A stretch of 64,000 nucleotides of DNA, from positions 248,001-312,000 of the forward strand of contig JADGEL010000004.1 of assembly GCA_016744415.1 (NCBI GenBank), written 5' to 3'. This DNA comes from Flavobacteriaceae bacterium (GTDB lineage: Bacteria; Bacteroidota; Bacteroidia; Flavobacteriales; Flavobacteriaceae). Each line of letters starts with the position of its first letter. Within the stretch, counting starts at the first letter, position 1. Below the pieces are notes generated by a model, which was not told the DNA's origin, searched no databases, and worked only from the letters and a program-made list of their open reading frames with translations. Shown here in pieces: positions 10,424 to 49,319 of the stretch. Position numbers and translations under genes: made by a program.

Positions 10424-11194
10424 TTATTCAATTTTATCTTTTACACATCTAAATCCAAGATTTCTCATGGTATATTTTGCTTTTACACTACCTCTAATAG
10501 CATATCTCATAAAAGCGGCATAGTTCATTAAATCGGTTGCTCCAATTGCAGCACTACCACAAAATAAATCACTATCATTATCTACATCTTTACGAGACTC
10601 ACCAGAAACCAAAACAGAATTAAAATCTAATGTCCATTCCCAAACCAAACCGTGTAAATCATACACTCCCCAATAATTTTTAAAGGTTGATCCTATTTCA
10701 TTATTAAACGTCTTTGGTTTTTCATACCAACTTAAAATGTATTCATTGTAGGTTTTTAATTGACGTGCATCAGGTAAATTTTCATTTGCCATTGCAACAT
10801 ATTCCCATTCATCAATTGACGGCAATCTCTTGTCTTGACATTCGCAATAAGCTTTAGCGGCAAACCATGAAATATTTGAAATGGCAGCTAAAGGGGATTG
10901 ATTTTTTCCTATGGCTGTATCAGATATCCAATCAATTAAATAACTATCATCAGCAAATAATTTGATTACATTAGATCTTTGCCACTTAGGGTATTGAATA
11001 ACAAAATCTAGGTATTCTTGATTCGTAACTGGATAAACATCCATGTCAAAATCTTGAATTGTTACTTTTAAAGAATCACGACCATACAAAGGAATGTATG
11101 TACCACCTTTAATAGAAACCATGTTAGACTGACCATTTGTATTGATTACAAAACTCATCATCACCCAAATTGTCAGTCTAAAAATAGTTTTCAT
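10424..11194 (-). CDS. nirV: NirV-like SUMF1/formylglycine-generating-enzyme-fold protein
   Basis: 256 residues with a signal peptide (MKTIFRLTIWVMMSFVINTNG), then an FGE-sulfatase/SUMF1 domain: SIKGGTYIPLYG, MDVYPVTNQEYLDFV, ISWFAAKAYCECQDKRLPSIDEW, GLVWEWTLDF and a final MRNLGFRCVKD. Proteins of this family called NirV are often encoded beside nirK; their exact role is not established. Context between nirK and a SCO gene argues for that assignment rather than sulfatase maturation, since no sulfatase is nearby. Its start codon is the end of a 93-bp intergenic repeat (11192-11284) that separates it from nirK. Confidence 0.8.
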   Translation of the reverse strand: MKTIFRLTIWVMMSFVINTNGQSNMVSIKGGTYIPLYGRDSLKVTIQDFDMDVYPVTNQEYLDFVIQYPKWQRSNVIKLFADDSYLIDWISDTAIGKNQSPLAAISNISWFAAKAYCECQDKRLPSIDEWEYVAMANENLPDARQLKTYNEYILSWYEKPKTFNNEIGSTFKNYWGVYDLHGLVWEWTLDFNSVLVSGESRKDVDNDSDLFCGSAAIGATDLMNYAAFMRYAIRGSVKAKYTMRNLGFRCVKDKIE

Positions 11195-11284
11195 GTGTCT
11201 ATAATTATTGTTTTAAACGGTCACATGCTGTTCGTATTTAGTCATCCCTTCAAGGAATAAACTTTTTTACATGCTCGTTTCATC
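11192..11284 (-). repeat. intergenic start-codon element, copy 1 (nirK / nirV-like)
   Basis: Fills almost the whole space between nirK and the nirV-like gene. Read on the reverse strand: GATGAAACGAGCATGT, a variable core with a small hairpin (ATTCC-TTGAA-GGGAT), then CGAACAGCATGTGACCG, TTTAAAAC and TATAGACAC-ATG, where ATG is the gene's start codon. Copies at 42991-43082 and 49225-49319 have the same order and also end at start codons. Confidence 0.8.
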
Positions 11285-42606: not shown

Positions 42607-42993
42607 TTATTTCGGCCTCACCGCCAATATTACTTTAAAATGATTTCTATTGGCAATATCCATCACCAAAACAGCTTCTTCAATCGGCACACCTTCTTCA
42701 GCTCTTAATAAGATGGTTGGCTTATCTTGTCCTAGTAATAAAATTCTTAATTCTTCTTCAATATTCCCTTCTGCTACTTTTTTATTATTGATGTAAAATT
42801 TCGCATTCTTTTTAATGCTCACTGCTACATTTTTTGTGTTGGTCGATTTCCCTTTAGCTTTAGGTAAAATCATATCCAATGCATTTGGCGCATTAGAGGT
42901 CAACATAAAAAAGACCAACAATAAGAATACTATATCTGTCATAGAACTCATACTGAATTCTGGACTAACTTTATTTCTTCCTTTAAATTTCAT
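42607..42993 (-). CDS. exbD: biopolymer transport protein ExbD/TolR
   Basis: 128 residues. One N-terminal membrane helix with the functional aspartate in SMTDIVFLLLVFFMLTS, then a periplasmic domain (VAVSIKKNAKFYINNKKVAEG, ILLRAEEGVPIEEAVLVMDI). Forms the proton channel with ExbB and drives TonB. The start codon is the end of the 92-bp intergenic element (42991-43082), which separates it from exbB. tonB follows after 88 bases. Confidence 0.93.
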   Translation of the reverse strand: MKFKGRNKVSPEFSMSSMTDIVFLLLVFFMLTSNAPNALDMILPKAKGKSTNTKNVAVSIKKNAKFYINNKKVAEGNIEEELRILLLGQDKPTILLRAEEGVPIEEAVLVMDIANRNHFKVILAVRPK

Positions 42994-43082
42994 GTGTCTA
43001 TACTGTTTTTAAAATCGTTCACATGCTGTTCGCTATGAGACATCCCATTGGGTATGAAAAATTGAACATGCTCGTTTCATCT
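42991..43082 (-). repeat. intergenic start-codon element, copy 2 (exbB / exbD)
   Basis: Reverse strand order: GATGAAACGAGCATGTTC, a core with a hairpin CAT-A-CCC-AAT-GGG-ATG, then GCGAACAGCATGTGAACG, TTTTAAAAACA, TATAGACAC and the exbD ATG. The left and right flanks match copies 1 and 3; the core does not, but it also folds. Confidence 0.8.
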
Positions 43083-49224: not shown

Positions 49225-49319
49225 TATGAACGAGCTTGTTCAAAATATTAATTCAATGAGAAATTAATATTAGCGAACAGCATGTGAACAATTTAAAAAC
49301 AATAAAACACAAACACATG
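49225..49319 (+). repeat. intergenic start-codon element, copy 3 (porin / P-II)
   Basis: ATGAACGAGCTTGTTC, then a perfect 10-bp inverted repeat AATATTAATT (49244-49253) / AATTAATATT (49262-49271), then GCGAACAGCATGTGAACAA, TTTAAAAACAAT and ACACAAACAC-ATG, where ATG is the P-II start. Flanks agree with copies 1 and 2; the core sequence is different but again self-complementary. Confidence 0.8.

What the first reader, a model, noticed from the sequence alone, without database searches (positions are those of the whole stretch)
49225..49319. A three-copy intergenic element whose end is the next gene's start codon
Copies at 11192-11284 (-), 42991-43082 (-) and 49225-49319 (+) are 92-95 bases long. 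Each lies between two genes of one transcript and ends exactly at the start codon of the downstream gene (nirV-like, exbD, P-II). The order is always GAACGAGC.TGT, a variable core, CGAACAGCATGTGA, TTTAAAAC, ACAC-ATG. The three host loci are unrelated in function. Either a mobile element inserts so as to supply a ribosome-binding region and start codon, or an RNA leader of a common regulatory system was copied to these genes. I do not recognise a named family for it.
Basis: seen in the sequence. Interest (0 to 1): 0.8.

Follow-up and report, generated by a model that had tools for sequence, protein, structure and literature searches.

The report
Mobile element that inserts at start codons
A roughly 90-base mobile DNA element of marine flavobacteria inserts next to the letters ATGAAA, mostly exactly at the start codon of a gene, and leaves that gene whole with a new leader in front of it.

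Summary
The own genome holds 34 strong copies; the family is spread over many Flavobacteriaceae genera. In named genomes 116 of 122 non-tandem copies end at the start codon of an ORF of at least 60 codons, many of them core genes; about 48% of non-coding ATGAAA sites are start codons. Of 50 orthologs in four relatives, 49 lack it. One relative carries a fresh burst: 11 copies are identical, and identity stops at ATGAAA on both sides; there 18 of 25 copies lie at start codons.

Best reading: a small non-autonomous mobile element with target ATGAAA. It keeps the host's start codon and puts a short upstream ORF (often MKRAC*) and an A-rich leader before the gene. The enzyme that moves it was not found; the ends suggest an HUH (Y1) transposase, but linkage and co-occurrence do not support one. 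A structured RNA regulon is not supported. Ten paper searches showed no description of it.

The parts
11195..11283 (-). Element copy 1, 89 bp, between a 483-aa gene (stop 10 bases before the left ATG) and the NirV-like (FGE-sulfatase) gene
   Evidence: sequence, R1 match, start-codon test, orthologs without it in G012 and G009
11192..11194 (-). right ATG = host gene start codon (ATGAAA)
   Evidence: ORF 10424-11194, PF03781
42994..43080 (-). Element copy 2, 87 bp, between the upstream gene (exbB by its place, not searched) and exbD
   Evidence: sequence, R1 match, exbD orthologs without it in G005, G006, G009, G012
42991..42993 (-). right ATG = exbD start codon (ATGAAA)
   Evidence: PF02472
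49226..49316 (+). Element copy 3, 91 bp, between a 361-aa gene and the P-II gene (followed by an ammonium-transporter-like ORF, my reading)
   Evidence: sequence, R1 match, orthologs without it in G005 and G006, neighbouring ORFs
49226..49239 (+). left end of copy 3, ATGAACGAGCTTGT (ATGAA plus box 1; consensus ATGAAACGAGCATGT)
   Evidence: consensus of 127 distinct copies
49273..49288 (+). box 2 of copy 3, GCGAACAGCATGTGAA
49317..49319 (+). right ATG = P-II start codon (ATGAAA)
   Evidence: PF00543

Best explanation
It is a short (about 85-100 bp) non-autonomous mobile DNA element. SHOWN: it inserts next to the word ATGAAA, in one orientation relative to it. The target's ATGAAA lies at the right end and a second ATGAAA at the left end, so tandem insertions share one ATGAA. 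At a start codon this does little harm: coding sequence and start codon stay intact, and only a new leader is placed before them. INFERRED: it moves in trans through an enzyme that recognises box 1, box 2, a hairpin and the ATGAAA at each end. The likeliest kind is an HUH (Y1, IS200/IS605 or TnpA-REP type) transposase that cuts the bottom strand after TTTCAT; I give that step about 0.4. INFERRED: after insertion, ribosomes start at the old site on a 5-codon or longer upstream ORF (ATG AAA CGA GCA TGY TAA), and the host gene is translated by re-initiation or by direct entry on the A-rich 3' end of the element. INFERRED: selection removes many copies that sit elsewhere.
For: Copies: 34 strong matches in the own genome; 30 end at the start of an ORF of 100 aa or more, 2 at the next element, 1 at a 33-codon GTG frame, 1 is decayed. 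22 of 60 genomes searched, own included, have matches, two of them only near the threshold; a complete same-genus genome has 0. At least 119 stretches lie in named genomes. Start codons: 116 of 122 non-tandem copies, against 48% of non-coding ATGAAA sites. Target: ATGAA in 130 of 133 copies against 273 of 712 gene starts. Sites without it: 49 of 50 orthologs. Recent activity: in G019, 11 copies identical and 8 at 99%; 18 of 25 near-full copies at start codons, 7 elsewhere. Tandems sharing ATGAA. The sixth base of the left ATGAAA is not a copy of the target: in 4 of 4 copies whose right hexamer is ATGAAT or ATGAAG the left is ATGAAA.
Against: No mobilising enzyme was found. Y1 transposase is absent from the own genome and from 6 of the other 15 genomes with five or more matches. 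None of the 30 Y1 loci fetched (not all Y1 matches) has an element beside it, and the two multi-copy IS200-like elements of G019 share no ends with it. The association of Y1 with the element is not significant (9 of 16 against 13 of 38, six genomes with 1-4 matches left out; p 0.22). Fresh copies in G019 are less tied to start codons (18 of 25) than the mixed set (116 of 122; p 0.0016), so part of the specificity is probably selection; against a background of 60% the 18 of 25 is not significant (p 0.15). The base before the target differs by subfamily: T or C in 80% of named-genome copies, A in 21 of 25 in G019. Of the 49 orthologs without the element, 17 do not begin with ATGAA, so the ancestral hexamer is not always known. 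Nothing on translation was measured.
Confidence: 0.87

Rival explanations
1. A cis-regulatory RNA leader: box 2 pairs either with box 1 or with the CACATG that holds the start codon, so the upstream ORF or a ligand switches translation of a dispersed regulon.
For: CATGTG of box 2 is complementary to CACATG at the start codon; each of the six pairs is unchanged in 21-27 of 27 own copies. In subfamily B, box 1 and box 2 pair over 6-9 bp in 25 of the 26 rows that start with the B left end, many of them near-identical copies, and the letters differ between types, e.g. CATCCAT/ATGGATG and CTTCCAT/ATGGAAG. At Winogradskyella metF the element is 0.81-0.97 identical among four species while the 90 bases before it are 0.36-0.71.
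Against: No compensatory change in the 27 own copies. In 127 named-genome copies only three adjacent pairs of a short central hairpin rank fairly high (9, 44 and 60 of 4278), the rest of that hairpin does not. No Rfam match. Hosts are unrelated, and the same genes mostly lack it in relatives. For trkA, a sulfatase gene and one more gene, orthologous copies change about as fast as their flanks or faster.
Confidence: 0.08
2. A retroelement: an RNA copy ending in AUGAAA anneals to nicked TTTCAT and primes reverse transcription at the target.
For: The ends fit such priming (sequence only).
Against: No RVT_1 match at E 1e-4 in 6 of the 8 element-rich genomes examined (G000, G006, G012, G018, G019, G037), including the one with the recent burst; the other two, G007 and G026, have one and two.
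Confidence: 0.04
3. A classical MITE moved by a DDE transposase, with ATGAA as a 5-bp target duplication.
For: Short, non-autonomous, repeated, 5 bp repeated at the ends.
Against: The inner ends CGAGC and GACAC are not inverted repeats of each other, and the direct repeat is nearly always the same word rather than whatever the target was.
Confidence: 0.04
4. Coincidence or shared ancestry of spacers.
For: None beyond three copies in one window.
Against: 34 copies, 119 or more stretches elsewhere, orthologs without it, identical copies at unrelated genes.
Confidence: 0.01

Closest known systems
REP/REPIN elements with their TnpA-REP (RAYT) transposases (PMC3116915 and PMC3733652 seen as search listings; PMC6006769 seen as passages)
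   Same: short, non-autonomous, many copies per genome, conserved ends around a freer core, some hairpin tendency
   Different: no GTAG-type word noticed in the consensus (read, not searched), one weak central hairpin instead of two REPs, fixed target ATGAAA, no copy beside the 30 Y1 loci fetched, no Y1 match in the own genome
IS200/IS605 family elements and their shortened derivatives (PMC6006769, passages)
   Same: target word of a few bases kept beside one end, no inverted repeats, one orientation, same word at tandem joints
   Different: no Y1 gene inside; a pair of subterminal hairpins not shown; Y1 elements of G019 have other ends
Rickettsia palindromic elements (PMC10969869, passages)
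   Same: short elements that host genes tolerate because reading is preserved; carry a small ORF
   Different: nearly half of those lie inside genes in frame; this one lies at the start codon and usually outside the protein
Correia elements, RUP and BOX (PMC10969869 passages; PMC3049150 search listing)
   Same: short repeats, for Correia mostly immediately upstream of genes
   Different: Correia elements carry promoters; here the joint is exactly the start codon and no terminal inverted repeats are present. What RUP and BOX look like is recalled only
TAACTGA direct repeats before start codons in Beggiatoaceae, Cyanobacteria and some Bacteroidetes (PMC4679880, abstract)
   Same: repeats placed within a few bases of start codons of unrelated genes
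   Different: heptamer arrays of unrelated sequence, no ATGAAA at both ends

Membership tests
Non-autonomous mobile element (general) | many copies at unrelated sites, with orthologous sites lacking it | tested here: met
Non-autonomous mobile element (general) | near-identical recent copies at unrelated sites | tested here: met
   G019, 11 identical copies
Classical MITE | terminal inverted repeats | tested here: not met
   ends CGAGC and GACAC (read)
REPIN/RAYT system | TnpA-REP gene in the genome, flanked by copies | tested here: not met
   no PF01797 match in G000; 0 of the 30 Y1 loci fetched with a copy nearby
REPIN/RAYT system | two inverted REP hairpins with a conserved tetranucleotide at the foot | tested here: inconclusive
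   one weak central hairpin; a box 1/box 2 helix is clear only in subfamily B; no search for the tetranucleotide was made
IS200/IS605-derived element | insertion 3' of a short target word that insertion does not duplicate | tested here: inconclusive
   ATGAAA at both ends; in 4 of 4 informative copies the left sixth base does not follow the target; ATGAA itself could still be duplicated
IS200/IS605-derived element | parent element with the same ends and a Y1 gene | tested here: not met
   no element ends on the G019 Y1 elements; no orphan halves around a gene in the loci fetched
Retroelement | reverse transcriptase available in the genome | tested here: not met
   no RVT_1 in 6 of 8 element-rich genomes
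Known structured RNA (Rfam 15) | match to a family | tested here: not met
cis-regulatory RNA in general | covarying helices | tested here: inconclusive
   little in the main subfamily; a helix with changed letters in subfamily B

The most novel reading that the evidence does not exclude
A new class of mobile DNA whose recombination site is the start codon itself: both ends are ATGAAA, it is moved by an enzyme of an unrecognised kind whose preference for the base before the target changes with the subfamily, and after insertion the host gene is run by a mobile translation leader (short upstream ORF, box 2 pairing with box 1 or with the start codon). It spreads such leaders through core genes of a whole bacterial family.
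Probability: 0.25. Interest if true: 0.92.

Novelty: new variant of a known kind. Interest (0 to 1): 0.76.

Why it matters
It is a natural case of an element that avoids harm by landing exactly on the joint between leader and protein. Genes that look like dnaN, pgk, metF, trkA, aroQ, ackA, hisB and glpK (my reading of their N-termini) begin behind such an insertion in some marine flavobacteria. This gives repeated natural experiments on how bacteria that make little use of Shine-Dalgarno sequences start translation, and points to an unknown mobilising enzyme with a target of about six bases. It also matters for annotation: the left ATG is a likely false start, and in some copies its frame runs on into the gene.

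Tried and rejected
Structured RNA: RNAalifold on the 27 own copies found 6 pairs without compensatory change. In a mutual-information ranking of 4278 column pairs, three adjacent pairs of a central hairpin rank 9, 44 and 60 (counted from 0), its other pairs far lower. The core folds slightly better than shuffles (mean z -0.62, 24 of 128 named copies in about the best 5%; own copies -0.67, 5 of 27), but in the named copies the A-rich part after box 2 does the same (-0.76, 46 of 128), so this is weak. A box 1/box 2 helix in subfamily A has no clear covariation.

Conserved peptide: the left ORF is MKRAC* or MNRAC* in 93 of 130 named copies, but in most own-genome copies it is longer or shifted. 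So the DNA rather than a long peptide seems to be kept.

Viral or plasmid origin: four viral contigs match a 16-base word, but none holds an element. The plasmid search gave two short matches in Leptospira, the phage search none.

Mobiliser: Y1; reverse transcriptase; TnpB zinc ribbon (0 of 17 genomes, control genomes rang); serine recombinase (absent in G012, G018, G019, G026 and G037, present in G000 and G006). The Y2 transposase search rang nowhere, not even in the control genomes, so it shows nothing. Tyrosine recombinases and DDE transposases were not tested.

Selection after insertion: mixed. At metF the element is kept better than its surroundings; at trkA, a sulfatase gene and one other gene it is not.

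In print: ten paper searches ran. None listed an element inserted at start codons of flavobacteria. No preprints and few subscription papers are held, so this is a weak negative.

Full report
What is in the window. Three copies lie at 11195-11283 (-), 42994-43080 (-) and 49226-49316 (+), each measured from the left ATG to the base before the right ATG. They precede a NirV-like sulfatase-modifying-factor gene, exbD and a P-II gene. The word CGAACAGCATGTGA occurs three times with up to 2 mismatches where shuffles give 0.22 on average.

Copies in the own genome. A word search with up to two mismatches gave 31 places. 30 came with loci; by eye I judged 27 to be copies and dropped 3, and one place without a locus was not looked at. 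Of the 27, 26 begin with ATGAA (one ATAAA) and 26 end at ATGAA (one GTGAA). A sequence-only model built from them found 34 strong matches and 2 weak ones. Of the 34, 30 end at the first codon of an ORF of 100 aa or more, 2 end at the next element of a tandem triple, 1 at a GTG frame of 33 codons, and 1 is decayed with both start codons lost. By my reading of the N-termini the hosts include trpE, ackA, aroQ, a formiminotransferase and an apbE-like gene, besides many secreted proteins and two response regulators.

Distribution. Of 60 genomes searched, own included, 22 have matches at E 0.01 or better, two of them only near that threshold. In the same genus, counts run from 0 in a complete 3.4-Mb genome to 73 (99 in the less strict search); two of 23 same-order genomes have 20 and 13 weaker matches. 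That pattern fixed box 1 and most of box 2, so conservation there cannot be judged on this set. The plasmid, phage and viral searches gave no true copy.

Position. In the 119 stretches, 149 profile hits were found. Weak, partial, repeated and edge hits were dropped; 133 remained. In 130 the right end reads ATGAA; in 3 it reads ATG with another continuation. Because the filter asks the match to reach model position 91, this share is somewhat favoured. Of the 130, 8 run into a further element, 116 into an ORF of 60 codons or more, and 6 into shorter frames, of which one looks to me like a site beside a terminator hairpin. In the same stretches 48% of non-coding ATGAAA sites are start codons under a simple ORF call (167 of 350), and 273 of 712 gene starts read ATGAA, 167 of them ATGAAA. 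The excess at start codons holds even against a background of 70%. The strongest further preference is T or C just before the target, 80% against 58%. In G019 (below), which carries another subfamily, that base is A in 21 of 25 copies, so this preference belongs to the subfamily or genome, not to the whole family.

Sites without the element. For 16 own genes I looked in four same-genus genomes, two of them rich in the element. 50 orthologs of 15 genes were found; 49 have no element before the start, and aroQ of G006 has a diverged copy. At one gene (g67) the upstream sequence can be followed to the last base before the start codon; at exbD, ackA and trpE the end of the upstream gene or terminator is recognisable to within about 20 bases. 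The start position is unchanged, so the downstream ATG belongs to the host. 32 of the 49 begin with ATGAA and 17 do not, so the hexamer before insertion is not known in each case.

Recent movement and exact ends. G019, of another genus, holds a second subfamily (ATGAAACATCC...GGATGTTACATGTGACC...ACACATGAAA). 11 copies are identical, 8 are at 99%, and 25 near-full copies are at 91% or more. Identity ends at ATGAAA on both sides. 18 of the 25 begin an ORF of 77 aa or more. Of the other 7, six lie in no open frame over 80 codons; the seventh has one across it that probably begins downstream. This lower share, against 116 of 122 in the mixed set (p 0.0016), suggests that the target is the hexamer and that selection does much of the rest; the two sets differ in subfamily and sampling. 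Against a 48% background 18 of 25 gives p 0.012, against 60% p 0.15. In 4 of 4 informative named copies the sixth base of the left hexamer does not follow a deviating target, which argues for an element that carries its own ATGAAA. Tandem arrays share one ATGAA at each joint: three units in the own genome, four before a glpK-like gene and at least five in a row elsewhere in G006.

Anatomy. Consensus of 127 distinct named copies: ATGAAACGAGCATGTTAAAA - core - AATAGCGAACAGCATGTGACC - A-rich stretch - ACACATGAAA. The left ATG opens MKRAC* or MNRAC* in 93 of 130 copies. In the own genome it is mostly longer, and in L052, L054 and L061 it runs into the frame after the right ATG. The A-rich end has A at -4, -6, -11, -12 and -14 in 77-96% of copies but C at -3 in 94%. 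In Flavobacterium johnsoniae, A at -3, -6, -12 and -13 favours initiation (PMC6847099, passages). So the element brings a fair but not ideal start context. In subfamily B box 1 and box 2 pair over 6-9 bp in 25 of 26 rows with the B left end, many near-identical (the whole parsed list of 56 rows, which includes misread A copies, has 30 at score 6 or more against 3.7% of shuffles). In subfamily A no such covariation is clear. The place of box 2 can be taken by unrelated palindromes, as in L165, L166, L195, L086 and L350.

Mechanism. A fixed word kept beside the element, no inverted ends, one orientation and a hairpin tendency resemble IS200/IS605 and TnpA-REP systems, where a guide at the hairpin foot interacts with a target tetranucleotide (PMC6006769, passages). 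On the bottom strand the target would be TTTCAT. Against it: no Y1 match in the own genome, no copy beside the 30 Y1 loci fetched, no shared ends with the Y1 elements of G019, and no significant co-occurrence. Reverse transcriptase is missing from 6 of 8 element-rich genomes, which speaks against a retroelement. I hold the mobile element as near certain and the HUH route at about 0.4.

Function for the host. Orthologous copies before trkA, a sulfatase gene and one more gene change about as fast as their flanks or faster, which fits a tolerated passenger. At metF of four Winogradskyella species the element is 0.81-0.97 identical while the 90 bases before it are 0.36-0.71, which fits either a useful leader or renewed insertion; random element pairs are already 0.78 alike on average.

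Novelty. Short non-autonomous elements are a known kind. A start-codon target with ATGAAA at both ends, in this family, I did not find in print (ten searches, listed under Tried and rejected), so I call it a new variant of a known kind.

Noticed in passing
L165, L166, L195, L203 (near 7854), L086, L350: In several copies box 2 is replaced or split by unrelated palindromes (TCCCGATA-type, CCTGCC-type, CACTGAGC-type) just before TGACC or its variant. The same place takes different hairpins in different genomes.
   Followed up: partly
L377, L378 (unnamed relative G006): Tandem arrays: four units before a glpK-like gene (L378) and at least five complete units in a row (L377).
   Followed up: partly
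L144, L146, L148, L151, L179, just before the metF-like elements: A small hairpin (CCTGC-TTTC-GCAGG or CCCAC-TTTC-GTGGG, with matching changes in several) lies about 10 bases before the left end of the element.
   Followed up: no
L100, L123, L361-L363, L365, L366, L368 (G019): Two IS200-like elements of about 590 bp, four copies each, 98-99.8% identical, unrelated to the start-codon element.
   Followed up: partly
L225 and L315; L223 and L348: Genes with matching N-termini carry subfamily A in one genome and subfamily B in another at the same start codon, which points to independent insertions at one site.
   Followed up: no
L309-L349 (G019) against the named-genome set: The base before the target is A in 21 of 25 subfamily B copies of G019 but T or C in 80% of subfamily A copies.
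   Followed up: partly
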